Assembly (NCBI RefSeq): GCF_964019385.1
Contig: NC_088644.1
Location: forward strand, 40,661,859-40,725,858
Source: Sycon ciliatum
Taxonomy: Eukaryota; Porifera; Calcarea; Leucosolenida; Sycettidae
DNA: 64,000 nucleotides
Reading direction: 5' to 3'
Part shown: positions 7,113-51,992 of the stretch, in pieces
Position numbering within the stretch: position 1 is the stretch's first letter
How the letters are laid out: each line of letters opens with the position of its first letter
The notes under the pieces: generated by a model
The model's input: the letters and a program-made list of their open reading frames with translations, nothing else
Databases searched by the model: none
What the model was told of the DNA's origin: nothing
Made by a program: the position numbers and the translations under genes

Positions 7113-7862
7113 TTATTTTATTTTGTTCATGTCTCCCCGGACCCCCGTACATTATTGTCACAGTCTCTCAACCTTCCCCTGGCTGTATTCTTGGGTTGAC
7201 TTTCACTTTGTGTAGGTCATCAACTACATGATCATGTCATGCCCATGTTTGCACAGTGCCCGCCCAAATAATTTAATTTAGAGATCGATATTTTTTTGAA
7301 AAGGACGAGACGAACAGGGACCAACCCCCCCCCCCCCCCCAACCGGCCCTCCAAACGAACGAATATCTTCTCTAAAAAAATATGGATATTTGTGGACGAC
7401 GGAGTGAAAATGCAGGAATATTTGACTGCTTAGGTATAGCGAAAATCTAGTCAAGCAGAATACTTCGGCCGTAAAGACTAAGCTAAGAGAGTGATAAACA
7501 TGCTTAGCATTCTACCGTTCACGCTATTTTCGACGGTCGGACAGTACCGTTTTTTTTAATGAGTACCGGTATTACTATTAAGTATTAGTATTAGTAAACG
7601 ACACCGTTTACTTTTCTTCTTTGTACTAACGGTACCCATTCAGCCATTGACACAGAGTATCCCGCGGCCCGAAGTATTCTGCTTGCACAACCGGTGTACA
7701 TGTACATAATTATGTCTTGTAACTAGGGAGTGGTAAAGTTCCTGCTTGTAAAGACAAGTACTACTGAAGTAGCGTTGTAACCCCGGAGGTCATTTCGCGA
7801 TTAGAGTGTGGGAGCGTGTGGTTCAACCGCCGTTGACGGAAAAGGACGGAGCAGCCGGCGAC
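7113..7862. other. Intergenic region and presumed promoter of the TRIM gene
   Basis: Contains a run of about 20 C near 7322-7340 and AT-rich sequence with short T runs. No gene or repeat family is recognised. The segment just before 7863 should hold the 5' untranslated region of the downstream gene, but no clear core promoter motif is visible. Confidence 0.4.
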
Positions 7863-32600: not shown

Positions 32601-35600
32601 CTAGGACTGCGATGTGTCAGCTAACTGTCTCTTTAGCTCACGTCTGAAGTAGTCAATAGTTTGTTGAATACCGGACTGAAAGGAGACCTGGGTCCGGAAA
32701 ACACACAAGATGAAAAGACAACGAAATCAAACTATCATCATCGATCGGAAGCATGAGCTGTGGAGACACGGAAAGGAGCGTAGAGCACAACTGCAAGCTA
32801 GGTACATCCCACCCACAGTGACGCTTACTGCAGTACACATACAGGTATGTCAGGAGCCAGCTTAGGAAATCATAAATAATCATAATTCCTGAAGTGAAAA
32901 TATGTAAAAACGCCACCGGGAGAAGCGAATCTCAAAACTAGCCGGTGCTCAAACATGACCCACGTAAAAATGGGAGTCACCATCTAGAAGGGATGGAACC
33001 ATAATGGAACAGTGCTGCAAAACAAAAGAGCAGTCTTGAATTCCCGGTGTGTCTCAACTTATAGACTTATTTCGAGTGAATGATACACGTTGATGAGTAT
33101 TTGGGCCAGTAATGTTCTGCTATGGAACTGTCCCCGTCCCCCTCCCATGTGGAATTCAAAACAAACAAAGGCATCTTGTATTGCTACAATACAGAGACTG
33201 GATTCCCATTAGCACCCAAATCACTGCTTCTGCTGCTGTAAATGTATTTACTGTCTTATGGATTAGAACTGACCTTTGGTTTCCAGCCGAGCACACGTCC
33301 AGCAAGAGAAATGTCGGGCTTCCTGCGCCTGGGGTCATCCTCTGCAGCTGGCTTTAGTACAATTGGCGGCGGACTGCTCCCTCCTACGAGTGAGTGAGTG
33401 CAACATAATAGTTATAGAAAAACAGAATTGATACAGAAGAACATGTGATGCAAAGCACATGGTACATATACGTTGATTACCGCGTGAAGAAGACATGGAC
33501 AGAATTCATGCTTATCAAGTGTCGCCCCTTCGAGTAGTTCAGCTACCGTAAAAGTCCGTAAATAAGTACCTGCCCGAAAGAAATACCCCCTTCATTCTTT
33601 TGGCTCTGTCTGTTGAAGTCAAGTCAAGCCCGATAAACATACTGCCCGAAATAAGTACCGGTACGATGCGCACATGCAGCACGTAGCATGTACAACGACA
33701 TGAAAATGACTTCTCCACTACACACAAGTCAGGTCTGAAAGTTAGTTCGTGCCCGAAAGTCAGTACCCGCCCGAAAGTTAGTACGGGTGTGGTCACTAAA
33801 TTCGAAAGTAAATACGTACTTATTTACGGACTTTTACGGTATCGCCTTACAATCTTGAATCGGGTTTTTGCTGAGGTACCGTGCATATCAGAAATAGTAT
33901 ATTGAAAGGGCCTCGAGCCGAGGTCCAAGCTTCCAAGTGCGTTTTTGTCGCAGACTTCGGAAGGTTTCGTGTGTGATGCATTGCATACAGTTACTGCCTT
34001 TGAGCCTACTACAGAGTACTAGTATAAGTGAAACGTTTGTGACTAAACCACAGCAGACTTCAAGTCCAGTCAGTCCGAGCATCATTTCAATACGTAATGA
34101 AGGCAGTGAGCCACGTGCCGCACCCATAGCTCGGAGAAAAGAGTCGCATAATCTTATGGACTCTTCAAAATACTTTATATCCCATTATTATACCGTATTT
34201 CCCACGATCACAAGTCGCACCCCTATTCTCAGGTTTGAGCCATATTTTTTCGATCTTTCCACTTCAGTAGTACTGGAGTAAGCCATGCTCGACTGTATGT
34301 CTTTTTGCCCTTGAATTTTAGTGTAAAAAGGTGCGACTTATATTTGGGGAAACACGGTAACCAGAGTCTACACTGATGTTTCAATGCACAAGCGAGAATC
34401 TCACCGGCCAGATGCTGGATCTCCTTAGCAAAGTCTAGGATCGTTCGCTCCTCTGGGTTTCCCTGTCAAACGAGAGCAGAGAAACAGAAAAGCAACAACA
34501 TGAGCACAACCATGTGGGCGCAGGGCATAATTAGCACAGACCTGTCAGAGCAGATTCGGGTACTACAGGCTGGGTCCCTATGAATCAAAGTTAGGATGTA
34601 GTCGTCGTACTGAATAACTAACAATTCGCAAGGCCATACCGCATGTGATCTGCACAGTCCACAGTGGACAATGCACACTACTACATCATAGCTCAAAGAA
34701 GCATTGCATACGTTCTACATGTAGCGCTATGCAAGTTGACAACGGCACGAAACTCAATTCAGTTGCTACCCTGAGTTTTGTGGCATTTAGCCAATCCTCA
34801 GACAACACCGGATTGGCAGAGTGACATGACAGTCTGAGCAACAAGCAAATTGAAAGTTCCCTGCTACTGTCAACTTGTGTTGTAAGCTCTGCTTCGTGTA
34901 AATGAGCACTTTAGTTTTCTCAGTCCAAACACCTAGAGCACTTTCGCAAGACAAGGGCATCTTAACGTTGTGCATTTAGTACTATACATAGGAGCTCACC
35001 ACGTTGACGGGGCCAGAGTAATTGCCGTTCATCAGGCGAATAAGTCCATCCACAAGATCACTGTCCACGCAGAAAATGAGTGAGCGTAAGTGAGCACGCG
35101 CGTCACACACATACATACAGAGGAATGCAATAGTTGCAGCAGATCAACGCTAAAAGCCACGGGTCTATGCCTGACATGCAGCCAGGATGCTTCTACTGTT
35201 AACAGGCATAGCACACTCCGGCAAAGCACACGTGCTGTACGTCACAAGAGAAACCGTGCCCAGCATAAAGAGGCTTGCACCTATGCACACCACACTCGAT
35301 GTGTACTTGAAGTGCTGGTGCAGTTGTGTGACGTTGGGCAGTTGAAGCGGAAGGCAAGCACTCAGGTCAGGATTAGTACAGTTATAGCAAGTGAAGTTCC
35401 ATTCTGGCTCTCTGGCGGATTCAGCACCATGATCCAGGGCTCAGTGACACCATCACATCTCAATTACAAATCACCATACAATACAACAACGGCCTCAGAG
35501 TGGCTGGTAGAACACAAGGTCAGGTCTTACAACACCAAGACAAGCTAGGTATGTCTACTTCAAAGTAGCTTGTACTGACCTCACGTATTGGAAGGAGCGT

Positions 35601-36605
35601 GTTTGCTGGCCCTTGCCATAGATCTACACACCAAATCACACAAGAATAAACCGTTCTCTCTCTTTAACTCGGATACTGAGCCAGTAATAAAAGTAAAATA
35701 AAAGAAAGCACAAGGGAACGAGCCATTGGTTTGCGCACTGGAGATGTGTTAGAGCTAGGTCTCAGGTCGTTGAATGTCACAGTAGCTTGTCAGTTTTGTG
35801 CCCTGTTACCGTGCTTATAGACTGCTTATTACCTTGTTACAGTCGTGGATAGTTGCTTCATAGCTCGTTCCCTTGTGTTCTCTCTTTCAAAATCAAACCC
35901 AACCACAAGGGAATTACTCACACACAAACAGGGGCAAAGTTTCCACGCGGGCAATTTCAACACAGATTGTGTGCCCCGTGTACCAGCAGAGCTTCACAAA
36001 CACAAAGTCAACTAGTGATTCGAAGTCGTCCACAGGAAAGGAGACAAGGGACTGCCGTACAGGTTAATATCTACACTCATATATCTTTCGTTGACCAGAT
36101 CTCAAAGTTACGGGTAAATCAGTCTACCGGCACCCTGTGCGTGAGCTTAAGTGGAAATATTACTACCGTCAGACCTCGCTTAGCCGCACACATCCGTTTC
36201 CCACAAAAATATCCGGATAGGCAAGGGAACCGGATAATCAAACACACACACTGTACGTATGCATGATTTATGCTGTAAATCGGTACCCAACAATTTTCTT
36301 CAGGGTGGCGAGGGATCCTGATAAGCGAGGTCTGACTGTACACGACACACTCCTTTGACATTTTTGTGGAAATGGTGACGCCATATGCCAGATCTCTGGC
36401 CCTTCCCAATCAAATGACGCGATTCAGAGTTACGGACATTTCAAAGTTAGGGCCAGTGGCTGGTCCCGGGCCTCCCGGATAAGAGAGATATGAGTGTAGA
36501 CGTAGATGCAACTGCCTAAAAGAGACGTAAGCAGTGCACAAGCGAACGATTGCACCAGCACATAATTATACAACGATTGCACCAGCACACCCACAACGAT
36601 TGCTC

Positions 36606-36677
<72 letters not shown>

Positions 36678-37476
36678 GAACACACACACACACACACAAC
36701 GATTGCACCAGCACACACACAACGATTGCACCAGCACACACACAAGACCATAGAGTGGATACGTACCGTGAGAGGATCGCCCGTCAGCGCCTGCATTATG
36801 AAATTGCTCACCACTCGACCTGCACATAACACATAGTCACACATACATGTAGGTGGGATACAATGAACAAAGAACGTGCATGCCAAACTACACGCATGTA
36901 CCTTTTTCAGGCTGCGCTCGTACACCATTTTTTCAAAAATCCAGCCAACAAAAGCTCTAAACATATTTCATCTTTATAATTTCAACACTACACTAGGAGT
37001 GTGTGTGTGTGGGGGGGGGGGGGGGGGGGGACAAGGCAACATTCACGACTAAAACTCTGACGTGCATGCTTACGTTGCATCAATCGCCAGCGATAGGTAA
37101 ATGCCAGTGATGGGTAAATGAAAGAGACGAAGCTGGACATCAGTAGAAAATGTAGTGAAGGGAGTTCCCTCATTACCAGCACAATCAGCAACAGGTGGGG
37201 TTTGTGCAGACAATTGTCCACAAGGAAGACAGGATGGACATCACTATAATTCTGAGTACTAACCATCGTTCATATGCATTCTAGGACCATATGTGTTGAA
37301 GATGCGAGCAACGCGTACTTCCACCTTAGCCTGTGTAACAACACCATACAAACACCATAGTGCAAATCAGCCAACAGAAGCACAGTTCATAGCACACCAT
37401 GAACTGTGCAAGGCATACAGCAGAGGGAGATAGATAGATAGAGAGGGATAGATAGACAGGGAGGGAGGGAGGGAGG

Positions 37477-37540
<64 letters not shown>

Positions 37541-40500
37541 TAGATAGAGAGACGGAGAAAGATGAACAAGCACGCACATACTGTACAAACACCAAGTACA
37601 GTGTACCGTGCACTTGGCCGCCAGCACCCCTACACCCACGCAAGTAAGCTTAGGGGTCATTTAGACTTCATGCAAGACAACATACTCACTCACCTGCTTC
37701 TGGTATGCGTAACACATCGTCTCCGCCACACGCTTGCCTTCATCGTAACAAGCCCTGGGACCGATGGGATTAACATTGCCCCAATACGATTCCACTTGAG
37801 GATGTACCTGTGTTAACAGATCACCACAATCATCACGGAGAAGAAGGGAAAGAGTTTCTTTCATACACTAGTGCATGTAAAATAGCAGACAGATAGTGCC
37901 GAAAGCTTTCTTTGGGCCAGAAAATGGCAAAATAGAAAAAAAGTAACCTTCCCACACCGGGAATCGAACCCGGGCCGCGGCGGTGAGAGCGCCGAATCCT
38001 AACCACTAGACCATATGGGAGAGACAATAGAGAGGTTCCGCATAACGTAATTACGTTAGTAAAAAACCTACGGAGAGTCTTAAGTAAACTGCATGCACAT
38101 CTGGGTTCCGCCATACGGAGCTTTCAAATCACGTAGCTGCCCTTGGCAACTCCGAACACGGCAGTGTACGACCAGATCGACCCGAGGAGAGAGTCATAAA
38201 TTTGTACCCCACTCCACTTACGGACCAGCTACGTTATCAGAGCCCTATCTACGTACTCTCCGTAGACAACTTTCCGTAAGTGGAGTGCAAACTCGCGAAT
38301 TCACGGGGTTTTCCCGCCCACTAACAGAGAGGTTCCGCACTACGTAAAGTTGAGCAACTTTACGTTAGTGGGCGGGAAAAACCCGTGATTTCCCGAGTTT
38401 GCACTCCACTAACGGAAAGTTGTCTATGGAGAGAACGTAGATAGGGCTCTGATAACGTAGCTGGTCTGGAAGTGGATTGGGGTACACATTTATGACTCTC
38501 TCCCCAGGTGGATCTGGTCGTACACTGTCGCGTTCGGAGTTGCCAAGGGCAGCTCCGTGATTTGAAAACTCCGTATGGCGGAACCAAGATACGCATGCAG
38601 TTTACGTAAGACTTTCCGTAGATCGATTACGTTTTTTACTAACGTACCGTAAAGTACCGTTGATCCGCCCCCTCTCTAATTCCCGCCCCCTGTCGATTTT
38701 CTCCTTGTGAAGCGACTTCGGCGTACACAACGAAATACGATGTTGAACCGACGCATGCACTGCTGTACACAATACTTGCCAATCCAGGATCAACATGTGC
38801 ACAATCCAGCACATTGAGTCTGATCCTCTACGTTGTTGTACATCGTACTGCACTTGACAGCCTTGATCTAATTCCCGCCCCCTGCCGAAAACCCAGCTGG
38901 GAAGCGACATGGCGTTGGGGCGGATCAACGGTACTTTACGGTAATTACAATATGCGGAACCTCTCTACTTGTACATGTAAAGTAGCTAGTAATAGTACCA
39001 AAAGCATTCTTCTTTGGGCCAGAAAATGGCAAAATAGAAGAAAAAAAGTAACCTTCCCACACCGGGAATCGAACCCGGGCCGCGGCGGTGAGAGCGCCGA
39101 ATCCTAACCACTAGACCATATGGGAGAGACAATAGCCAAGACCCAAGTACTCCACACAACCTGTTGGTGGTGGTAGTACAGTACAAAGCAGGTCCTGTTG
39201 TGGACATTGAAGCAAGATCAGTAAATTAGCGTAGTGTATTGCATCCGTCTTCTTTCTTTCTTTCTTTCTTTTGTAGAGGCCAATTTGGCAAGGTACAGTA
39301 ACCTCGGTGTCACAGCCAGTACCAACGTTGTGCTGGACTGGAGATGCGGTCACAGCCAGTACCAACGTTGTGCTGGACTGGAGATGCCAGTACCAACGTT
39401 GTGCTGGACTGGAGATGCGGTTTGCAGCTTCAACGAAAACCATGGCCTCAACTATCCACATATGTAGGAATGTCACCAAACTAACACGATGAATTCAGGT
39501 TTTCCAATTCCAACACTATGTAACAGAATGGTCCTAACTGCAACGTAGTGCTTCAGCCCTATACATAGGTGGTCAGAGAGGACCCACTGCTTATGACTTA
39601 CATCCGGGTCTAGCGTCAAGCAGTCCATGACGATCATCCACACGCCAACACAATCAGACGAACCGGGAGGTTCAGAGCGAAAACAAACAAAATTCAGAAA
39701 GTTAGACGAAACCCTTGAAGACGTTTTCAGAGACTCAAGGTGTGTAGCATTCAGAGACACAAAGTTTTCTGAAACACAGTGCTAAAAAGTCAATATAATG
39801 ATGTACCACAAAATTGTCTAGAATACAGTACTCTCTGCTGTGTATTGGCCAACGGAACGGACTCAACGACCTACCTCCATAGACTTCAGATGTTGATGCC
39901 ATTAGGAAACGTGCACGCACTCGCTTGGCCAGACCTGCAGGCAGTGAACACCGGTACAACGCAGAACAGAATGCTGAACGTTACACCAAAGAAACTCCTT
40001 CGCTTGGTTCGACATGGATTTAATTGCTATGTAGCCCCTCTACAGTCAACATCAACGTGAGAAAGAACAGAGAACATCACCAGGGTGAAGTAATGGTCTC
40101 ACCTAAGAGGTTGAGCGTTCCTTGAGTGTTAGTCTTGATCGTCTGCAATTCATATATACAAAAAAGAGGCAAAATATTCACTGGTTTGAGGGACAGATGC
40201 AAACGGGAAAAGTCTAAAGAAAAATTTGACTGTCACCACCAGGACTCGACCCAGTGACATTCGCTTGAGGCCAGTGATGCTCTAACCACTGAGCTATGGT
40301 GTAGCTGTCATCCAAGCAGAGACCGTTCAACACTGAGGCAAAATAGTTGTTACTTTGCGCTTCAATTTGCTTTTCCTACCCCTCCTGATTTTTCTCTCAA
40401 AGCCTAATGCTAGTTACATCACATGGCTACTTCAAAGGAAGAAGTTCATTGTTGAACGTCAAGGCATGAGCATCAGAAACTCTCTCCACTGCCTTCCTCT

Positions 40501-40869
40501 TGCGCGGTCTGCCTCTACGCAAACACAACCTCTGTTCCTTGCTTACCGTCACTGGTCTCTCCTAACACATCTAGAATCCTGCCAATATTATAAGACGTTC
40601 ATGCAGCTGCAGAATGGAACACGCTAATTGATACCCTGCTCTGCTTTGGCTCCCCCCCCCCTCCCCTTGCTTCTCATACATTTCTGTTCCCACTTTCATT
40701 TTTCCTTGTATTGTGGCCATGGCTGGCTATCGCCTACATCACCTCTTCATCAGCTAGTGCCACGTGTTAATAAAGAACACTAAGACAAACCACACAAACC
40801 TTGATTGGGTTGTACATGTAGTGAGGCGGCGAGGCTGGTGATGCAAGGTGATAAATCTGATCAACTACA

Positions 40870-40926
<57 letters not shown>

Positions 40927-43900
40927 AGAGAGAGTTACAATACTCTAAAGCATTTCAAGAAGGCTCCAATCTAATCGGCACAGGAAGGCAACACTGTTCA
41001 TCTACTTCAAATAAAACAGACAACAGACAACAGACAGCACCACCGCCATCACCACCACCGCCACCGCCATCACCACCACCACCACCGCCATCACCACCAC
41101 CAGCAATGGCAACAACAACTAACAGAAACAGCTACATTCCTAGCACCAAACCATGAACAGAATGCTGGTTCAACAGCGTACCTTCAATGCGCAACGGGTC
41201 GACCACGTCGTGGTTTATCATTTCAAAGTTCTCATGGCCAACCCTGCAGGCAAAACAGAACAATATACTTGTTTTCTTCGTGAAGTACGCAACGCCTTGC
41301 ACGCAGCAGTGGTCCGTCTACCAAGACTAGCAGTTGTCTAAGTCCTACATACAAGCATTGACAAGCCTCTGGTGCAACCATGTGAACCAAAGCCACTGCA
41401 TGTACACGTACTCAGCAAGGCAAAGTGGAACAAGAAGCAAACTAAAGATATGCGTCTGGTTTACAGCATTACATAATCATCAGATCTTCACTGCACAATA
41501 AGGCGTATCAAGGTATACTAGTTAGGGTGCGTTCAGACTAACTATAAAAAGTGACGGCATGGGAATGTTTCCGGTTTATCGCCGTTCACAGTTTGACGGG
41601 GTTCTCGGTAGTCTGAACTAAGCAACGGTTAGATCTTCGTGTACACTGTGGCATGCATGTAAGCCACTTAGTACATGTATCTGGGCTACCAGTGGAGATG
41701 TGGTGACTGAGTGCTTACTACCAGTGGAGATATGGTGACTGAGTGCTTACTACCAGTGCAGATATGGTGACTGAGTGCTTACTACCAGTGGAGATCGGGT
41801 GAGTGCTTACCAGTGCTCCACATTGCTCTTGCGCCCTGTGAAGAAGTTATCTGCCACAGTCACCTGCAGTGAGGGAAGAACACAGACACACACACACACG
41901 CACACAGACACACACACAGACACACACACAGACACAGGCACACAGACACAGGCACACACACAGACACACACACACAGATACACGCACACAGATACACGCA
42001 CACACATACACAATCAATCAATACGAGTGCACTGCATGCAAAAGAAGTGGCTAGGAAAGCCGAACACCCCGCCTCATGCCCCCACACGCAGATAAATATC
42101 TACATTTGCGCATGTAGCACTTGCGCATGTAGCACAGACGCCCCTGGAAAATCTGGTAAGGTCTCTCCCACCATCACTCTTCCTAATTGGTATAATGCGG
42201 ATATGAGCAGAGGCCTGTAAATCATAATATCCATCTAGCTCTCGCATGGGTCAGAGCAGCGACAGATTGGCACCTTAGAAGGGGTGAGTAATGCCAGCTA
42301 GACAGTAGATAGTGAAACCAGAAATACACAGAATATCATCACACAACAATGGGGACTACAGTATTACAATGCCATAACAGAAATAAGAATCGTACGTATT
42401 TCTTCTGCACACACAGACTGTCAGCTCAGGTTTCAGCTTGGCAATATACTTTGAATATTACATGTAGTACACTGCCAGCAGCACAGCCAGGTGAGATTTG
42501 TTGCGTGCTCCCACTGGAATTTTAACCCTTTATTGGCCGATTAAAATATAAACAAGCCCACGCAATCGCCAAACCCGTACCTAAATTGGACGTAACTTTA
42601 GTTTGCACTGGACAAATTCCATGATCTTGGGCATTCTGGAAAGGCCTTGGCGAGAGGAGCACAATGAGCGTACACCCGACTCCATGGGATGCACTGGCCC
42701 AGCGCTGCAAGCCGGGGAAGGCCCACCAGCGCTGGGCTCACGCTCGAGATCTATCTCTATCCACCATTTCACTCCTGTTGCTCGTATCAAACTAAATTTT
42801 TTTGTATAGACTCCCGGGAACCTGCTTTTGAAGTTGAATCGGTGTAGCATTGTCAACAGGTGACGTAAGCAGGGAAAATCCCGGTCATTGACCCACGCAT
42901 CACGCTCTGAGCGCAAATTTCCCGGGACCAACATTACGAGTGATATAACTCAAGAACCGCTCTTTGTATCGCTTTGAAAATTGTTCGAGGTGGCAGCTGA
43001 GAGTTTTCTCTTTGACCTACATATTTCGATCTCTCCGAAAGACCGAGATTTGACCGAGTTACGATAATTTCAAAATGCCTACCCCATCGAACATCGGTGT
43101 TCGATCAATGTATGGGCCAGCCAATAAAGGGTTAAGTGGGAATGGATGTTGTGTTTGTATTTCTAGTTACACAATGTAGCTGGTGCCACGCAGGCTCTTT
43201 CAGGTGTCGATCTGTCACTCCTTTGACTACCAAAAAGCTAGATAAACAGGATTGGCTTGCTTCTCCTCATATCACCATTGTGCCAATTACAAAGAGTAAT
43301 GGTGTGAACGCCTTAATGGATTTTCCAGTGCCTGTAGTCCTATGTGCGCTGATTGTCTTCATGCAACAGAATACTTGCACATCGCCCATGCTAGATTCTA
43401 CAACGAAGAACATTTCAAATACACATACACGAGCGAGCAGGGAGTATGCACACAGACAGACAGACAGACACACACATCCACACCGGCAGCCACTGAGGGC
43501 GCTTACTTCATGTCCTTGAAGCATCAGGGCGTCAACAAGGTGCGAGCCAACAAAGCCAGCGCCACCTGTCACCTACGAGAGAACATTGAGCACACCCGAG
43601 AATATCAACAACATAACTAATTAATTGTGAAAAGAAGAAGGACAAACCATCCGAGTTACATAACTAATTGTGTACATATAGCAAAGACACACATAGATAC
43701 TGAATCAGCTGTGATGTCTACTACTGTAGAATGGCTAATTTTAGCGGGCAATTTCTTTGCATTTTCGGAATCTGGACCAATTTGCATCTGAGTTTCAGAC
43801 TTCAAAAAGAAGGATGACTGTACTGTACATGCTAAATTTCGATTGGCGCGGCAAAATTTTAGCGAAAACACTCCTTTCGTTAAAATCGCTAAAATATCAC

Positions 43901-46900
43901 CGTGGCTAAAATTAGCCGTTTTACAGTACAGGCTAAAGCTACATGACAAGCTCCTACAGACAGAATACTAAGTGCACTGTTTAAGAGGTAATTTGACGGA
44001 GTTGGCGCTATCCAAGGCCAGGTAAACAGGCATTATTTCACTAGTGATGTGGCTGCAGTCGGTTTATGTCCCAGAATGTCATTGCAATCGCCCTGAAATA
44101 TAGTGCGTGTCTGTGTGTGTGCGCGCGTGCGCGTGTGTGTGTGCACGTGTGTTTCCTGCATGCACCGGTCGAAAACAGCATTCCGTGAGTACATGTAGCA
44201 TGTGCAAGTTTGACAGGCAGGTTACACGCAGTATTCTGAAATCACACAGCTGACTCGATGTTCTGCTGCACCAAACCATCTCCAATGATCAGCTTACCAA
44301 GATTCGCTTTCTGTCTTTGATGGAGAGAAATTTCGTCTTCATGTACGTTTTTACTCCACTATAGAGAGGACAGTCACCACAACAAACGGAGAAAAAAAAA
44401 CAGAAAAAAGATTTGACTCCTGAGTCCTTATGAAAATACAACATGTATTCAAGGCTGAGAGCTGGCTAATCTCACGGCATGTTTTTCATGTTGATTACGT
44501 CACACAGGACAACACAACAGTGCGTAGGAATAACATGATTAACACGTTGAGTTTGCATGCCTTTTTCAGGTAATCGTGACGTCACACTGAGAATACCGAT
44601 GGTCGGCGGCTCTTCAAGAACACATAAATAAATAAATAAATAAATTCGACGGGGTTCGCGTACCGGGCTGCCGACAGGTCAAGAACAAGGAGTCGTACAA
44701 CTCCCTGGTCAAGAACCACCTTTTTTTTCAAGAACACATAGCACTGCATATCAGGTGGTGGTGTTTCGGGAACAATACGGGCAAATAATACTGTTCTTCG
44801 CATAGCACCGGCGTTATGAAATTGTTCTTTTTTCACCATGGCTAATTACGAATCATAGGTACAGTACAAGGTCAGTGTAATAAAGAGCGCCTTACGTTTG
44901 AGCTGTTTGCTTTTCCAACTGGCTGATGCGCTCCTCTAGATTGTGCAACTGCTGCTGTATGGTGTGCACGTCCTGTCGTTCACTCCTGTGCAAGGACAAC
45001 AGACAAACAACAGAGCACTGATTGGAAGGGCAAGCACTGAAACTTGAAGCGTGTAGCAGCACGCACTCAACACTGGCTGCACATCATTGTATGGACCATC
45101 GCTGTTTCATTGGACATTTGTGTCTCCTTGTCCACCGTCAGGATGAATGCTGATTCAACATGACATCCTGTACATGGGACGCTCACATCATGCATGCAAT
45201 GCATTTTCTTTACTTTGTGACAGTCAGGAGTATTGCCGTAGTCGGCGCTACTGTTGCGGTTACGATTGCGGGTGGCACTGGTCGCAAGGTAAGCTCTTGC
45301 TGGCTGTGCCAAGCCGTAACGTACGATGTCATGCTGTTAGAGAACGGCTAAGCTGCATCCCAACCCAGTGTGCTATCCTTGTTGATACATGTACAGTGTA
45401 TTTGCGATACTTGACGTACATTATCCGTACCAGAGCCCTAGCTAGAGCTGCATTGGGGCAGCAGGCAACGAGCTGCTGCTCACACTTGTGCTTATACACG
45501 TATATGCAACTACAGTCGACCTACCCTTATAACGATAACCTCTATAACGATATTACCCTTATAACGATATTTTTCTGCCAAACCAAATCACTCCATTGAC
45601 TTTTGTATACAATGCCCTACCCTTATAACAATATTGCTATAACGATATTACCCCTATAACGATATAAAATGGGCTGACCAATCAACATTTTCCATTTTAT
45701 AACAATATCTAGCAGGGAAGATGTAGAGCCCACTATCCAGGTAGGGCAAGCTTCACTTGATAAGTCGCTGGGACATGACGACATGCAATGGGGGCACCAG
45801 TGGGCACCTTGCTGTGTACATAATGTGCATGTATGTCAGTTTTTTATGCTATGAAGAGTGTAAAAATTGAACAAAATCCATGCATTATGACGTATGTGTA
45901 TGAAATGAACCAGTTACCCCTATAACAATATTACCCTTATAACAATATTTCTTGGTCTGACGCAAATATCGTTATAAGGGTAGGTCGACTGTAATTGGAG
46001 ATAGTTTTTTCCACACGTGTACTTACACTCCTCGCGGCAAGGATACCAGTAGTGCTGCATAGAAGTGGACAGCACAGCAAAAAGGGGACAGAACAGGGAA
46101 ATAAAGAGTACTCGTTTAAACCATTACATCATGAACATTCAAGTGTTAGTGTTGTTTGTTTGTTTATTTAGAGTCGAAGAACAAACAGGCAAATTTGCCT
46201 AATTACAGGATATCGACTAAAAGTTGATCTGCCTTTCCTACAGCATACTCATCTGTACAGCAGAAAGAAATCTGTATGCAGTACTGAAAGACATGTATAT
46301 ATAACGAGGAAGTAAATCTAACGTTTTAACGGATGACATTTCTTCGTTATAATAAGATCTGTTGAGGCCATACTGCTTCATATATGTTGTATGAATTTTG
46401 GACAATTGTTAAATTTGCGACTCGTTGTAATAACATGTCTTACAGTAGTCACAATGTCCCACTGCCAGTGTATCTACAGCCACAGACCATGAGCACCACC
46501 AAGCTAAATACTTAGTACATCATGGATACTACTGTGGTGGACAGGACATGGAAATCCGGTCGAAGGCCAAGCGGCCCCAGGGCGCTGGCCATGCAGCCGT
46601 GAGCACGCATACGATCAACACGTGCACTGCATGCAACGTTCTGTATGCACTGAGGGCGCCGGCCCAGGTCATTAGACTGGATTTCCATGTCCACGACAGC
46701 AGTACAGCACTGATATCATGGTCGCCGTGGTGATGACTGGAAATGGGCCAGGCCCTTTTCAAAGCGTGTTCATAACAACAACCAGACCATCGACACACGA
46801 TGACAGCACAGTAGGAGTCTCTGAAATTACGCTCACCATGCCTTTATTAGGTTCCAGAATAGGTCACACTTTACGCAAAGCACTGTTTATTTTATACACT

Positions 46901-48504
46901 AAAAATTAAACACTTTTGAACAAAATCCGGCAGTCTTTGCTGTATAAAACGCGCAGGTTGGTCTCCTGAGCACCTGCTGGACATATGGCAGAGTGCTGGT
47001 GTTACAACAATACATAATAATTATTATACACTACATACAGGGCAACCAATGTGTTCCGGTCACTTCAGATACATGTCCTCCGCAATGTGCTAGTAGGGAG
47101 GTTTAGTCCCACGTAGTCCGTGGGTACTTTACGTGTGTGTACCACGTGATACTCAGTGACCCACGTACAGACGTTTTCTGGTTCACGACATACCGTGCAT
47201 GGCGGCTCACCCACGTTCCGCCAGAACGTGGGTGAAAATCAGAATGGAGCGTATTGTGCAAGCTGTGAGGGTGCTCAGCTGAAGAAGTTTCCGAAGCACG
47301 AAATCAAAATATTGGATGAGCTTCTTAGGCCCGGGTAGCTTCGTCTTTGACCAGGTTTGGGCCTTTCGCTTCATGCTTTTGTTTGTTCCGTGTGACTAAA
47401 CACAACATTGCAACGTAGGTGCCCTTCATCCACTTTACGTGGATCACCCACGTACGCGTTTCCGTTACGTGGGAACTAAACCTCCCTAGTGATTGTATCG
47501 CCATTTTGATGCAACCAGCCATATTTATGGCACGCGTAGATATCACCCTACTACGTGCTGGAGTGTGCTTCAGTACTTGGTGCACGCTTTTGCTAAGCCG
47601 CGCTGCCTTACTTGCACCCTCAATGTCTGTCTTTTTGCTCTTTACTTACTTGCAATTTTTGTAAACCCAACAAGTCATGTCTTGTGTGCGTCTCTAGAGT
47701 GCGTTTCAAAAGTATAGACCTCTAGACTCTAGACTTTTACTCATAATTCAAATTCGGTTTGAGCTTTTTCGAGAAATTTCTTCGGGAGATTGCTCGGGCA
47801 GCTTCCGCAATTTTTTCTCATATACATTTCTAAGCAATTGGATAACAAAAACCCAATTTTGGAAATTTTATGCACAAAGTGATCACAGAATTTTTGTAAA
47901 CCCAACAAGTCATGTCTTGTGTGCGTCTCTAGAGTGCGTTTCAAAAGTATAGACCTCTAGACTCTAGACTTTTACTCATAATTCAAATTCGGTTTGAGCT
48001 TTTTCGAGAAATTTCTTCGGGAGATTGCTCGGGCAGCTTCCGCAATTTTTTCTCATACATTTCTAAGCAATTGGATAACAAAAGCCCAATTTTGGAAATT
48101 TTATGCACAAAGTGATCACAGATTTTATGTGGTATAGAATGATAGATGCTGGCCTACTACTAGTAACATTTGTTTTTGAAACCAGATGTCTGCAGATCTG
48201 GACTTATGAAACGCACTATAATCACTACGGGTACTACTGGTATTGTAAGCTGTGCATTACTGTATCCATCATAGCTATACTGTATCCATCATAGCAAGAG
48301 TGCATATGGACCTTGATCATAGCTATACTGTAGCAACATTGATCAATACTCATTACGCGGAATCAATGGGAAATTATTGTAATAATTGATGAACTTCTTC
48401 ACTACGAACTCAGCAAAGCACACAAGCTCACCGAAAGCAACAAAGACTAAAGACGTCCATAGCGCGAACTTCACGCCTGTCCTGACCGAAGCCGACGAAA
48501 TCAT
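32601..48504 (-). CDS. UXS1: UDP-glucuronate decarboxylase (UDP-xylose synthase)
   Basis: Nineteen coding exons (minus): 48504-48432, 46054-46027, 44985-44896, 44358-44298, 43572-43507, 41863-41811, 41243-41182, 40864-40800, 40142-40103, 39934-39875, 39609-39602, 37807-37694, 37330-37264, 36819-36767, 35623-35580, 35060-35000, 34462-34405, 33383-33274, 32687-32601. They total 1200 nt, all phases agree, and they give 399 residues (human 420). It is an SDR-type enzyme that makes UDP-xylose from UDP-glucuronate with bound NAD in the Golgi, for proteoglycan linkers. Residues 13-30 form a type II membrane anchor and 32-80 a coiled stem. The Rossmann glycines are G87, G90 and G93. Catalytic residues are S/T in ASTSEVYG (192-199) and Y223/K227. 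A different in-frame ATG at 48582 would add 26 residues. The first two exons are supported by phase and membrane-anchor logic only. Introns are packed with MITEs, two tRNA genes and microsatellites. Confidence 0.95.
33546..33839. mobile_element. TA-flanked MITE in UXS1 intron
   Basis: Ends CCGTAAAAGTCCGTAAATAA and its complement, flanked by TA. Interior words CCCGAAAG and AAGTTAGTA. 294 bp, no coding capacity. Confidence 0.8.
34193..34357. mobile_element. TA-flanked MITE (CCGTATTTCC type) in UXS1 intron
   Basis: Left end CCGTATTTCCCACGATCACA and AAGTCGCACC; right end GGTGCGACTTAT then GGGGAAACACGG; TA on both sides. 165 bp. Shares an intron with the previous MITE. Confidence 0.75.
36166..36338. 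mobile_element. pogo/Tigger-like MITE in UXS1 intron, 173 bp
   Basis: Left end contains GTCAGACCTCGCTTAGC; right end contains AAGCGAGGTCTGACTG followed by TA. The GATAAGCGAGG phrase is typical of Tigger-like termini. Confidence 0.75.
36608..36752 (+). repeat. (CA)n microsatellite with ACGATTGCACCAGCACAC units
   Basis: A long (CA)n run is flanked on both sides by 2-3 copies of an 18-20 bp unit ACGATTGCACCAGCACAC. It starts close to the donor of the UXS1 exon at 36767. Confidence 0.9.
37010..37031 (+). repeat. Poly(G) tract in UXS1 intron
   Basis: About 20 consecutive G after a short GT run. Similar homopolymers occur at 7322, 18405, 28989, 31368, 52660, 58706 and 60317, a recurrent feature of this window. 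Confidence 0.85.
37430..37555 (+). repeat. GATA/GGGA/(GA)n compound microsatellite
   Basis: Runs of GATA, GGGA and GA in succession in a UXS1 intron. Confidence 0.9.
37949..38020 (-). tRNA. tRNA-Glu (CTC), copy 1
   Basis: A 72-nt gene on the minus strand. Acceptor stem TCCCATA pairs with TGTGGGA plus discriminator A. The A box is TGGTCTAGTGGTTAGGATTC. The anticodon arm CGGCG-CTCTCAC-CGCCG has anticodon CTC, which reads GAG. The B box is GGTTCGATTCC. No intron. All stems pair, so it looks functional. It lies in a UXS1 intron on the same strand as the host gene. A T-rich tract on the gene strand lies just downstream (plus-strand run of A at 37934-37942), which fits a pol III terminator. Confidence 0.95.
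38030..38965. mobile_element. Foldback MITE (GAGAGGTTCCGC) between the two tRNA genes
   Basis: Outer ends GAGAGGTTCCGCATAACGTAAT and a complementary right end CGTAATTACAATATGCGGAA..., each bordered by TA. Inside, roughly 38030-38640 is a palindrome centred near 38345, where another AGAGAGGTTCCGC occurs. This suggests a copy nested in or fused to another. 936 bp, no coding capacity. Ends match the element at 28550-28924. Confidence 0.75.
39054..39125 (-). tRNA. tRNA-Glu (CTC), copy 2
   Basis: Identical in its 72-nt body to the copy at 37949-38020. Flanks are also shared: TTTGGGCCAGAAAATGGCA on one side and GAGACAATAG on the other. The gene was therefore duplicated as a block of at least 150 bp. 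Same UXS1 intron and strand. Confidence 0.95.
39317..39422 (+). repeat. Tandem repeat, 3 copies of a 34-42 bp unit
   Basis: The unit CAGTACCAACGTTGTGCTGG followed by ACTGGAGATG occurs three times, two with an added CGGTCACAGC spacer. In a UXS1 intron. Confidence 0.9.
40231..40340 (-). mobile_element. tRNA-derived SINE-like repeat, copy 1
   Basis: On the minus strand TAGCTCAGTGGTTAGAGCA is a good A box and GGGTCGAGTCC a near-consensus B box. The acceptor and T stems pair only partly, so this is a tRNA-like relic, not a tRNA gene. The A-box half and the sequence beyond it (to ACCGTTCAACA) recur at 56868-56932, indicating a dispersed element. Confidence 0.6.
40871..40935 (+). repeat. (GA)n microsatellite forming a UXS1 polypyrimidine tract
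   Basis: Read on the gene strand this is (CU)n, ending a few bases before the acceptor TGTTGTAG of the exon starting at 40864. Confidence 0.9.
41038..41106 (+). repeat. ACC/GCC trinucleotide repeat in UXS1 intron
   Basis: Imperfect CACCACCGCCATCACCACCA repeats. Located 60-70 nt upstream (plus) of the exon at 41182-41243, i.e. downstream of its donor. Confidence 0.85.
41524..41617. mobile_element. Short MITE with GTTCAGACTA ends
   Basis: AGGGTGCGTTCAGACTAACT at the left and GGTAGTCTGAAC at the right, about 94 bp apart. Family also at 27160-28100. Confidence 0.65.
41681..41815 (+). repeat. 33-bp tandem repeat reaching into a UXS1 splice donor
   Basis: TACCAGTGGAGATATGGTGA followed by CTGAGTGCTTAC occurs about four times. 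The last, shortened copy overlaps the splice donor of the exon at 41811-41863. On the gene strand each unit carries a CACTGGTAGTAAGCACTC phrase that resembles the true donor CACTG/GTAAGCACTC. Confidence 0.88.
41880..42010 (+). repeat. (CA)n-rich microsatellite beside a UXS1 acceptor
   Basis: CACACAGACACA-type array. On the gene strand it is UG-rich and ends about 17 nt before the acceptor CTGCAG of the exon at 41863. Confidence 0.9.
42526..43131. mobile_element. TTAA-flanked 606-bp MITE in UXS1 intron
   Basis: Ends CCCTTTATTGGC and GCCAATAAAGGG, bordered by TTAA at 42522-42525 and 43132-43135. The TIRs are short and the interior is not palindromic. No transposase. Confidence 0.8.
43724..43926. 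mobile_element. TA-flanked MITE in UXS1 intron, 203 bp
   Basis: Ends CTGTAGAATGGCTAATTTTAG and CTAAAATTAGCCGTTTTACAG with TA on both sides. The arms contain AAATTTTAGCG words. Confidence 0.78.
45513..45991. mobile_element. pogo-like MITE in UXS1 intron, 479 bp
   Basis: TIR CAGTCGACCTACCCTTATAA and its exact complement, flanked by TA. Internal TATAACGATATTACCCTTAT repeats point inward from both ends. Confidence 0.85.
46542..46702. repeat. Inverted-repeat element in UXS1 intron
   Basis: GGACATGGAAATCC near 46542 is mirrored by GGATTTCCATGTCC near 46690, with GCGCTGGCC/GGCGCCGGC pairs inside. Confidence 0.6.
47092..47490. mobile_element. Palindromic MITE (GGGAGGTTTAGTCCCACG) in UXS1 intron 1
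   Basis: Left end GGGAGGTTTAGTCCCACGTA and right end TACGTGGGAACTAAACCTCCC. CCACGTA words recur inward. The flanks share TA or TAGT, so the exact target duplication is ambiguous. Confidence 0.75.
47654..48122 (+). repeat. Tandem duplication of a 235-bp unit in UXS1 intron 1
   Basis: The sequence beginning AATTTTTGTAAACCCAACAA at 47654 starts again at 47889 and runs to about 48122. The copies differ only by a 2-bp deletion and a few substitutions, so the duplication is recent. Confidence 0.93.
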
Positions 48505-50180
48505 TGTAGATGGCAGCAGAGCAATTCTTTGGATATAATGCTTGATTACTCTCACTTGACTTGGAGGACGCAGAGGATTCATTCCTCACAAGGTCTCTCA
48601 AGAACAAACGCTACGTTGATAGCAGCTTGTCTGAAGCACATGTCGTGTGCATAGGCATTGAAGGCCACACACGGCCGCCTAGTACCACTAAAACTGACAA
48701 CCAGAAGTCAAACTGCAGCCACGTAACTAGTACTAGATCTAGACCACATATCTTCGTCTTGATCGTGAGATAAAAATTACAAAGAGCAACAGCATTGTTT
48801 TGCCGTGGATCATGGAAAAAAAGAGTTGCGCGTAGACCTACGCACGAGTCGCGCGTGGCGCGGCCTGCATGACTGCATTCGTCAAAAGGGCCCGCGCCCG
48901 GTGCTCTCCCCGCCCCTCCCTGTCCCCCGGGCCACCTACCAGCTACCCCTAGGCCCTCGGCCCTCGATATTTTGCACCCTATTTTGCACATATATCTACC
49001 AGCATGCAGCAAGAGTTCATGAACTCTTGCTACCAGGCATAAACGATGATAAAGACGTACACGACAGTATTGTACAATACATATACTATCAATCAAGAGT
49101 GCATTATTTTATGGATTCTTGGTATTAGAATAGCAAGAGTATAATTACCGGTATACTCTTGATAATACCAACATAATACATGTAGCCCCCCCGGGGGTTA
49201 TACTACCATGTACAATGTACATGTACATGAGTGCACAAACATCATCGCCAGTGATATCTGGTGATCACTGATGTGTTGATGATCTAGACAACAGAAAGTA
49301 CACTAAGTATTAGTGATTCAAGTAGGCCTGTCCACACATTGATTGCTTTATTTTTATGGATTGCATGGATGAAAATGCAATGCTTTCAGCAGTAACTTTT
49401 AATGGATGTTGATATCTGGCTAAAAAATATATGCTGTCAACCAACCTAACGACACAGTCATATTGCCTGGAGTATTACGACCAAATATTTAGGTCATGAC
49501 TACTGCCCTAACATCAAGGCGATGAACCGAATTAGAAAACAATGCTGTATACATCATCAAAAGTCTTGACACCATGCATACGAGTCGGTATGAGTGATAT
49601 CAGGTAACTGTAACGACTCATGACGTCACAGGGCCGGTTGCATCTGCAATCATAAGTTACTGGAACATGACTTGAATAAGTAGGAAAAGGGGGTTTGTCA
49701 ACTGGCAAACGCCCTTTTCTTTCATAATGCAGTTGCGTGATGTCCACACATTCTTAGTGTAGAATAAGAAGACGCACATATCCTACCAGGAACGAAGTAC
49801 ACGCCATTAGTGGCAGTGGAGTGCCAGTGTGATCAGTGCAACTACATGTACAGAGAGTCCTGCGTGTGCTCAGTGACTGCTCATCTTGCAAACGGACTAA
49901 TATCAAACGCACAACTACACCCGGCTACCTGGCATAGTGGTTTTTTTTTGAATTTTACCTGCTGTCTGGTCTGATCTGAATGTAGCAGGGTGTCTCGGCT
50001 TGCAGTTACATGTACACCTACATTATTAATTTTACACGTACATTTCGAGAATCCATGCTCAGCTGATAAGCAATTAAAAATGTGATATTTCCAAAAAGAA
50101 TGAGAAAAGTAAAGCAACTTTGGTGCATTGTCGTTGCACATGAGTTCAGATAATCGCATCTTGTTTGTCACGTCAATAAA
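48505..50180. other. Region between UXS1 and MAD2L1BP
   Basis: The left part holds the presumed UXS1 promoter and 5' leader. A GC-rich patch at about 48835-48965 is consistent with a CpG-rich promoter. Short hairpins of the CAAGAGT family occur at 48296, 49009-49030, 49096-49122 and 49135-49163. The right part should contain the MAD2L1BP 3' untranslated region. No further gene is recognised. Confidence 0.45.
49009..49163. repeat. Three CAAGAGT...ACTCTTG hairpins
   Basis: GCAAGAGTTCATGAACTCTT plus GC is a perfect 22-bp palindrome. Two further hairpins with CAAGAGT and (A)CTCTTG/ATTCTTG arms follow within 150 bp. Arms match the termini of the palindromic MITE at 58442-58744. Confidence 0.7.
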
Positions 50181-51125
50181 TCAACTAGTCCCTGAGAATC
50201 CTCTCAATGTGACTGGAATCTGATACCAAGCTACAGCCTTGTCACAGATTGCAGCAGCAGCATCAGCAGCAGCGCATGCTGTTGCTGTTGAGTCTGCACT
50301 ACCAGAGCCTGTTTCCTCACTGGACACACTGAAAGTTTCCATGCGACTGGCCAGGTCATCAGCGTCGCTTGCAGTTACACCATCGAGAACTTCATGGGTA
50401 GCATCTACAGGAAAGCCAGGCATTGCTGCAGCTGCAGGTGAGACGGTTTCAGCATTGCTCTCTCTGGCAAGTGTCTGATCCCGACTGGCTCCCGGTCCAC
50501 GGGCAACAAAGCGAACGTGGACCGCGGTTCTTGGTATCCTAAATGCTCTTACCGGCTTCAGGCCCAGGTGCTCGGGAGGCGGATAAGGGATGTTTAGCAA
50601 AACAGATGCTCGCATTATTGTCTTAGCTGGCTTTAGTCTCTTAGTCCAATCAACATGGCTTGCTAGCATTCCCAGCAGACTAAAACGGCAGAGCTTATCG
50701 TTGTTCGTCGCTTGGCCGGCATCTGGGCACCGAGTAAGTTGGCTAATGTCAACCTCGTACACCTCCTTAGCACTGATCGTTGTCGCACCGAACATCAGCA
50801 TGACACTCTTCACATCGACATTCGCCACGGCTGCCTTCATTGCGTCCGACACGAGCTGCAGCTCAGCCAGGAACTTGCTCCTGTCCTGCCGCTGTGGGCC
50901 ACGCCGTCGCACTGGCGCTCCATCAGCAGCCCCCTCTTCCTGACTTTCCACTCGCCGTAGGATCTTGACTACACACGGGATCTGGCTGCGCTCGAAGAGA
51001 ACCGCTTCCAGGACGGCAATGACCAGGCAAGCTAGAGAGTCAGCAGTCAGGTCATCTCGCTCCACGGGAAGACACGTCTCCGTGCAAGCAGATTGCTTTG
51101 GCTTTCTCACTGGCCGTCCAGACAT
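50181..51125 (-). CDS. MAD2L1BP: MAD2L1-binding protein (p31comet)
   Basis: Minus-strand exon of 314 codons from the ATG at 51125 to TGA at 50183-50181. p31comet binds closed MAD2 and, with the AAA ATPase TRIP13, takes apart the mitotic checkpoint complex. Conserved pieces visible here are SLACLVIAVLEAVLFERSQIP near the start (residues 30-50), VMLMFGATTISAKEVYEVDIS (about 108-128), and a final WYQIPVTLRGF next to the C-terminus (about 300-310). Human p31comet has 274 residues; an Ala/Ser-rich insert at about 230-290 explains the extra length. The open frame continues upstream to an ATG at 51386, but a pyrimidine-rich stretch ending CAG at 51132-51130, just before the chosen ATG, looks like a splice acceptor. 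An additional 5' exon is therefore likely and the start is uncertain. Confidence 0.85.
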   Translation of the reverse strand: MSGRPVRKPKQSACTETCLPVERDDLTADSLACLVIAVLEAVLFERSQIPCVVKILRRVESQEEGAADGAPVRRRGPQRQDRSKFLAELQLVSDAMKAAVANVDVKSVMLMFGATTISAKEVYEVDISQLTRCPDAGQATNNDKLCRFSLLGMLASHVDWTKRLKPAKTIMRASVLLNIPYPPPEHLGLKPVRAFRIPRTAVHVRFVARGPGASRDQTLARESNAETVSPAAAAMPGFPVDATHEVLDGVTASDADDLASRMETFSVSSEETGSGSADSTATACAAADAAAAICDKAVAWYQIPVTLRGFSGTS

Positions 51126-51992
51126 CCACTGGCAATAGAGATACAGCAACAAATCAGCCCAGACCAGCGTATAACGGGTGAATGTGATGAGCCAGTGTGT
51201 TGCTTGGTGCAGTGACCACGATTCGCTGAATCTAGAGAATTTGGAATGGAAAGAAATTTCTAAGTTTCCTGTTGCTGTACCAAATTTCCAAATGCCACTG
51301 GAACTAAGTCGAGAGGAAATACCTGTAAGTGCTGACTCCTCACAGGTCACACATGTAGATAAGTGTGAATATTTGTTCACTGACACATGGATTTGTCCAA
51401 TTGGTTCTCACCTTCACTCGATGCGCGGTATGGACCTACTCAATGACATACCGTAGATGTGCGAAAGACCAAACGAAAGAAACAAAGACCCTTGCTATGG
51501 GATCCTGCTTCAAGTTATCATGGGAAGACACACGTAGTGACATATGCACCCCAGATACTACTATTACTAACAGTAAAGCAGACAAGCCATCGCTGCACTG
51601 ACAGTCTCTAGACTACTAGTATTCTAGTCTGTCTCTGTGTTGTTTTGATTTGTGCTTCTCTTGACTCAGGACTTTTTACTCTGTACATGTGCATTTTTTC
51701 TTTGTCTTCTTTGATTTTTGAATCTGCCGCTTCCTCGGATGACGTAAACACTTGCACACCCATGATGTCATCTGCTAGTTGTCATGGAAACGAGTGGTGT
51801 AGGACGAAAAAGACGACGTTCAGATTGCATTGATGTTTTGTTCAAGACAAGAGGCTGTTTTTTGTTGTTGTTCGTCCATGGTGACTTGTAATGTTTGTTG
51901 TGGGAACAGTCAAGTTATCTGGTCTCGACCCCTCTCATACTGGATTCGTAAATACTGGTAAAGGATATAATCTCTGAATCGTTTCTAAAATA
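51126..51992. promoter_or_regulatory. Divergent intergenic region MAD2L1BP / aminotransferase-like gene
   Basis: Two genes point away from each other across about 870 bp. Transcription starts for both are expected here, possibly with a 5' exon of MAD2L1BP. No distinct core motif was identified. Confidence 0.4.

What the first reader, a model, noticed from the sequence alone, without database searches (positions are those of the whole stretch)
39602..39609. An 8-nucleotide microexon in UXS1
The upstream exon (39934-39875) ends in phase 1 after EVYG, and the downstream exon (37807-37694) starts in phase 0 at VHPQ, so they cannot be joined directly. Between them, ACCCGGAT sits precisely between a minus-strand AG and GTAAGT. 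It supplies D-P-D, which is what UXS1 proteins have at this place (YG-D-P-E/D-VHPQ). With it, the whole gene closes in frame at 1200 nt. Exons this short are rare and need special recognition. This one lies next to a 1.8-kb intron that holds two tRNA genes and a foldback MITE.
Basis: partly seen in the sequence, partly recalled or inferred. Interest (0 to 1): 0.75.

Follow-up and report, generated by a model that had tools for sequence, protein, structure and literature searches.

The report
Eight-nucleotide exon in UXS1 gene
An animal's gene for a sugar-handling enzyme appears to carry an exon only eight letters long that must be spliced in to keep the protein readable; it is a convincing new example of a known kind of very short exon.

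Summary
UXS1 (UDP-xylose synthase) lies on the minus strand as 19 exons, 1278 nt, 425 residues, one stop at the end. Exon 11 is ACCCGGAT (39609-39602) between TAG and GTAAGT and codes D-P-D. Of the combinations of 29 donors, 9 acceptors and 2159 middle exons (or none) tested, exactly one restores the UXS motif: this one. In 160 relatives the P is invariant, D is 154 of 160, indels 0 of 160. An AG-exon-GTRAGT pattern coding D-P occurs 101 times in 538 Mb, about 0.0002 per 2067 nt of one strand. Skipping gives an early stop. The donor is strong; the acceptor scores lowest of the gene's 18, but a 102-nt AG-free zone upstream holds CTAAC and a T-rich tract. I therefore propose, as inference, a distant branch point. 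This resembles fly eMIC-dependent exons, yet no eMIC domain was found in this genome (inconclusive). There is no RNA evidence, and no other animal genome could be compared. New member of a known kind.

The parts
39602..39609 (-). 8-nt microexon (exon 11) ACCCGGAT; with the last G of exon 10 it codes D226-P227-D228
39875..39934 (-). exon 10 (60 nt), ends in phase 1 after EVYG
37694..37807 (-). exon 12 (114 nt), starts in phase 0 at VHPQ
39610..39874 (-). upstream intron, 265 nt, GTAGGT...CTAG
37808..39601 (-). downstream intron, 1794 nt, GTAAGT...CACAG
39612..39713 (-). AG-free zone of 102 nt before the acceptor AG of the microexon; holds CTAAC (branch-point-like, A at -93), a T-rich tract at about -91 to -66, and a second branch-like CTGAT (A at -45)
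   Evidence: role inferred
32601..48582 (-). whole UXS1 coding region, 19 exons, 1278 nt, 425 residues
37949..38020 (-). tRNA-Glu (CTC) in the downstream intron
39054..39125 (-). tRNA-Glu (CTC), second copy
38028..38967 (.). composite insertion between the two tRNA units: 27-nt outer inverted repeats, foldback arms 38059-38325 / 38364-38630, nested repeat about 38644-38945

Best explanation
It is an obligatory 8-nt exon of UXS1. It adds two bases to the G left by exon 10 and then two whole codons, giving the conserved D-P-x between EVYG and VHPQ. If it is skipped, the frame shifts and a stop follows in exon 12 with seven exon junctions downstream, so the transcript would probably be lost (NMD, inferred). 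Shown: sequence, frame, uniqueness, conservation of the encoded residues. Inferred (about 0.4): because factors on both sides of an 8-nt exon would crowd each other, the 3' side is recognised from a distance. The branch point would be CTAAC (A at -93) with a T-rich tract after it, and the first AG after them is the exon's acceptor. The donor GTAAGT, recalled as the full U1-pairing sequence on the intron side, anchors the other side.
For: One solution among the combinations tested. Gap-free alignment to human UXS1 with DPE at the place. P 160 of 160, D 154 of 160, indels 0 of 160 in relatives (one of six scan patterns contained DPD, so the 17 DPD rows may be selected; the other 143 cannot have come through that pattern). 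Donor third best of 171 GTs in the span, the real donor of exon 10 counted among them. AG-free zone of 102 nt: reached by 3 of 728 decoy AGs and by 2 of 17 other real acceptors. CTAAY inside the AG-free zone: 15 of 664 decoys, 1 of 17 other acceptors, and here. Frameshift and stop on skipping. Genome rate of the pattern about 0.0002 per span. One UXS1 locus found; the single other hit of 14 is a 29%-identical SDR.
Against: No RNA data. The acceptor scores lowest of the gene's 18 (-4.07) and only 47th of 112 AGs in the span. The weights rest on 17 introns. By plain pyrimidine content (-20 to -3) the acceptor is not unusual: 0.56, with 5 of 17 other real acceptors at or below it, which weakens the case that recognition must be distant. 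The long AG-free zone is shared by 2 of 17 other acceptors, so it is not special to the microexon. CTAAC can be chance, and CTGAT (A at -45) would be nearer the usual distance. TGC near the acceptor is also present in 11 of 17 others. No processed retrocopy with the junction was found. D-P-any with a plain GT arises in 967 of 20000 shuffles.
Confidence: 0.8

Rival explanations
1. The exon is real but longer: the same acceptor is used with a donor further downstream, inserting residues after D-P-D.
For: Six longer in-frame exons from the same acceptor are open (26, 65, 71, 95, 122 and 128 nt).
Against: Indels here in 0 of 160 relatives, none in human UXS1, and GTAAGT at the 8-nt boundary is third of 171 GTs in the span; none of the six longer exons' donors is among the twelve best listed.
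Confidence: 0.04
2. The octamer is a coincidence: a different splice route (non-canonical sites, or two further tiny exons) supplies D-P-x.
For: Low acceptor score. Two-middle-exon combinations and sites other than GT/GC-AG were not enumerated. D-P-any with a plain GT is found in 967 of 20000 shuffles.
Against: The search with none or one middle exon has one solution; with the strong donor the rate is 8 of 20000 shuffles and about 0.0002 per span in the genome.
Confidence: 0.03
3. The exon is alternatively spliced, and skipping is a regulated off switch (unproductive splicing) for UDP-xylose supply.
For: Low acceptor score, long AG-free zone and CTAAC recall the architecture reported for regulated eMIC exons (PMC8797185, section 10 read); skipping gives an early stop with 7 junctions downstream.
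Against: The donor is strong; no eMIC domain was found (inconclusive); there are no expression data; an exon that codes an almost invariant D-P is an unlikely target (inference).
Confidence: 0.13

Closest known systems
Constitutively spliced micro-exons of human genes (PMC4317164; 12 passages seen)
   Same: Very short internal exon, here expected to be included in all functional transcripts.
   Different: Those have stronger splice sites, shorter flanking introns and, in 96%, a U2AF-associated motif 10-20 nt upstream; here the acceptor scores low and the downstream intron is 1.8 kb. Presence of a U2AF motif was not tested formally.
eMIC/SRRM4-dependent neural microexons (PMC8797185; section 10 read, other passages seen)
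   Same: Low-scoring 3' splice site, long AG exclusion zone, CUAAY upstream, TGC near the acceptor.
   Different: Those are alternative and neuronal, in flies with weak 5' sites and short introns, and eMIC is reported as arising in bilaterian ancestors; this exon is needed for the frame, has a strong donor and a 1.8-kb intron, and no eMIC domain was found in this genome.
Human UXS1 (PDB 2b69, 4gll, 4lk3, 4m55)
   Same: Gap-free alignment through EVYG-DP[DE]-VHPQ.
   Different: Whether the human gene has exon boundaries at the same two places could not be looked up here.

Membership tests
UXS1 (UDP-glucuronate decarboxylase) | Similarity over the whole catalytic domain to solved UXS1, with TSEVYG and YDEGK (motifs recalled) | tested here: met
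   phmmer E 2e-164 to 2b69 over residues 104-419; Pfam GDP_Man_Dehyd 2.9e-54
Microexon (short internal exon) | Length and canonical AG/GT boundaries | tested here: met
   8 nt, TAG / GTAAGT
Microexon (short internal exon) | Present in spliced RNA | not testable with these tools
   no transcripts held; no retrocopy with the junction in the genome
Human-type constitutive micro-exon | Strong 3' splice site | tested here: not met
   acceptor score lowest of 18 with weights from 17 introns; pyrimidine content alone is not low (5 of 17 others at or below)
Human-type constitutive micro-exon | U2AF-associated motif at -10 to -20 | not tested
   only base content was counted
eMIC-dependent exon | Weak 3' splice site, long AG exclusion zone, CUAAY, UGC near the site | tested here: inconclusive
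   all four can be pointed out, but the zone is as long in 2 of 17 and TGC present in 11 of 17 other acceptors of the gene
eMIC-dependent exon | Genome encodes an eMIC (SRRM_C) domain | tested here: inconclusive
   no hit at E 0.001; at E 10 eight weak hits, best 0.22, none over the cut-off and none on C10 where cwf21 lies; the tool's control genomes did not ring at 0.001, and a domain split by introns could be missed
eMIC-dependent exon | Neuronal, alternative inclusion dependent on SRRM3/4 | not testable with these tools
   no RNA data

The most novel reading that the evidence does not exclude
A 3' splice site with a distant branch point and a long AG-free zone, known from eMIC-dependent neural microexons, serves an obligatory 8-nt exon in an animal without a detectable eMIC domain. 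The layout would then be an older, general answer to the crowding problem of tiny exons, which the eMIC programme later adopted.
Probability: 0.17. Interest if true: 0.6.

Novelty: new member of a known kind. Interest (0 to 1): 0.4.

Why it matters
Exons this short are easily missed by gene predictors and read aligners (general knowledge), and without this one UXS1, which makes the xylose donor for proteoglycans, would look broken. Because skipping destroys the frame, the locus is a clean natural test of how a spliceosome handles an 8-nt exon outside the neural microexon programme.

Tried and rejected
Direct joining of exons 10 and 12: frameshift and stop. Alternative donors and acceptors near both exons with none or one middle exon of up to 150 nt: only the proposed exon works. 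Longer D-P exons, from 39609 or from 38513: rejected for the insertion they bring. A processed retrocopy as proof of splicing: none with up to 3 mismatches. A second UXS1 gene: none found; an SDR in one open frame on C1 is only 29% identical. A special meaning for TGC near the acceptor: it is in 11 of 17 other acceptors and 200 of 664 decoys. A viral relative, L001, matched at 24% identity only and was not used. Papers: UXS1 with microexon, UXS1 with micro-exon, UDP-xylose synthase with microexon: 0 papers each; a search with the decarboxylase names found 28 papers, of which the 20 listed had no occurrence of microexon and 8 were not shown. Supplements could not be read. Species: not identified; Dysidea avara (575 Mb, 162 scaffolds; passages of PMC12909245) does not match 538 Mb in 313 contigs. 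Other animals could not be searched with the collections on hand.

Full report
What was checked. The stretch 32601-48582 on the minus strand was rebuilt exon by exon. Nineteen exons join into 1278 nt, 425 residues, with a single stop at the end; all 18 introns are GT-AG. The protein matches human UXS1 over residues 104-419 with E 2e-164. The human sequence reads EVYGDPEVHPQ where this one reads EVYGDPDVHPQ, with no gap.

The microexon. Exon 11 is ACCCGGAT (39609-39602), between TAG and GTAAGT. Exon lengths in the gene are 8 and 28 nt for the two shortest and 40 to 151 nt for the rest. Direct joining of exons 10 and 12 gives twelve wrong residues and a stop, with seven exon junctions still downstream.

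Is it more than chance? Combinations of 29 donors (GT or GC, from within exon 10 to 200 nt beyond it), 9 acceptors (200 nt before to 20 nt inside exon 12) and 2159 middle exons of up to 150 nt, or none, were translated. In dinucleotide shuffles of the 2067-nt span, an AG-8-GT exon coding D-P-any without a stop appears in 967 of 20000, and with a GTRAGT donor in 8 of 20000; the donor condition was set after the fact. In the whole genome the latter pattern (stops not excluded) occurs 101 times on both strands of 538 Mb, about 0.0002 per span of one strand; the tool's reversed-pattern control gave 171. One of the six scan patterns contained DPD, so the 17 DPD rows may be favoured; the other 143 cannot have come through it. 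Being the best matches, the 160 are not a random sample of the family.

Splice signals. Scored with weights from the other introns of the gene, the donor of the microexon is third of 171 GTs in the span, but its acceptor is 47th of 112 AGs and the lowest of the 18 real ones. Against this, its plain pyrimidine content at -20 to -3 (0.56) is not unusual: 5 of the 17 other acceptors are at or below it. There is no other AG for 102 nt upstream. Only 3 of 728 decoy AGs in these introns have so long an AG-free zone, against 2 of the 17 other real acceptors. This supports a genuine acceptor independently of the protein, but is not special to microexons. Inside the zone lie CTAAC (A at -93), a T-rich tract to about -66, and CTGAT (A at -45). 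CTAAY inside the zone is found in 15 of 664 decoys and 1 of 17 other acceptors.

Proposed working. With 8 nt between the sites, factors bound next to both ends would crowd each other; steric hindrance is given as a possible reason why exons of 51 nt or less tend to be skipped (PMC4317164, passages). Placing the branch point and T-rich tract about 66-93 nt upstream would leave room for U1 on GTAAGT, and the first AG after the branch would be chosen. This is inference, at about 0.4; a branch at -45 would be more ordinary and would refute it.

Comparison. [quoted passage not shown] The acceptor score and the 1.8-kb intron here do not fit that; the U2AF motif was not tested. In flies, eMIC-dependent exons show extremely weak 3' splice sites, long AG exclusion zones, UGC near the site, longer polypyrimidine tracts and strong CUAAY branch motifs, said to be largely unique to eMIC regulation, together with weak 5' sites and short introns (PMC8797185, section 10). 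The present exon shares several 3' features and lacks the last two. The same paper places the origin of eMIC in bilaterian ancestors (passages). A cwf21 match, the domain of the SRRM2 family, is found on C10; the eMIC domain is not, which is inconclusive because the control genomes did not ring and a split domain could be missed.

Surroundings. The 1794-nt downstream intron holds two tRNA-Glu(CTC) genes in a 97-nt stretch that is identical in both, part of units alike over about 170 nt, on either side of a composite insertion (38028-38967). Forty tRNA-Glu-type matches were scored of 98 candidates, the two here included. The nested repeat has at least 39 other copies at 97-99% (which scored 40 of 2261 candidates). 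I saw nothing that ties these to the microexon, and made no test of it.

Limits. No transcripts, no second animal genome and no annotation of this genome were available. I could not look up whether the human or any other animal UXS1 gene has the same exon, so its age is unknown, and it may already be annotated. Four paper searches showed no paper on a UXS1 microexon (and the 20 of 28 papers listed), in an open-licence library and without supplements.

Verdict. A very probably real, obligatory 8-nt exon: a new member of a known kind, with a splice-site layout worth testing.

Noticed in passing
37934-38030 and 39039-39135: Two identical 97-nt stretches with tRNA-Glu(CTC), part of units alike over about 170 nt, flank a composite insertion; 40 tRNA-Glu-type matches scored of 98 candidates in the genome, these two included.
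   Followed up: partly
38028-38967: Composite insertion with 27-nt outer inverted repeats, a foldback with 267-nt arms (90% complementary) and a nested repeat of about 300 nt with at least 39 other genome copies at 97-99% identity.
   Followed up: partly
46027-46054: Exon 2 of UXS1 is also short, 28 nt.
   Followed up: no
about 40228-40300: tRNA-like stretch in intron 8, seen by eye, not called by ARAGORN or Rfam; possibly a tRNA-derived repeat.
   Followed up: no
50184-51407: Open frame of 408 codons on the minus strand with a p31comet match, E 1.3e-7.
   Followed up: no
7773-10151: Open frame of 793 codons with a B-box zinc finger match, E 9.8e-7.
   Followed up: no
L018 (G000:C1:26121757-26122719): SDR/epimerase-type gene in one open frame, 29% identical to UXS1.
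   Followed up: partly
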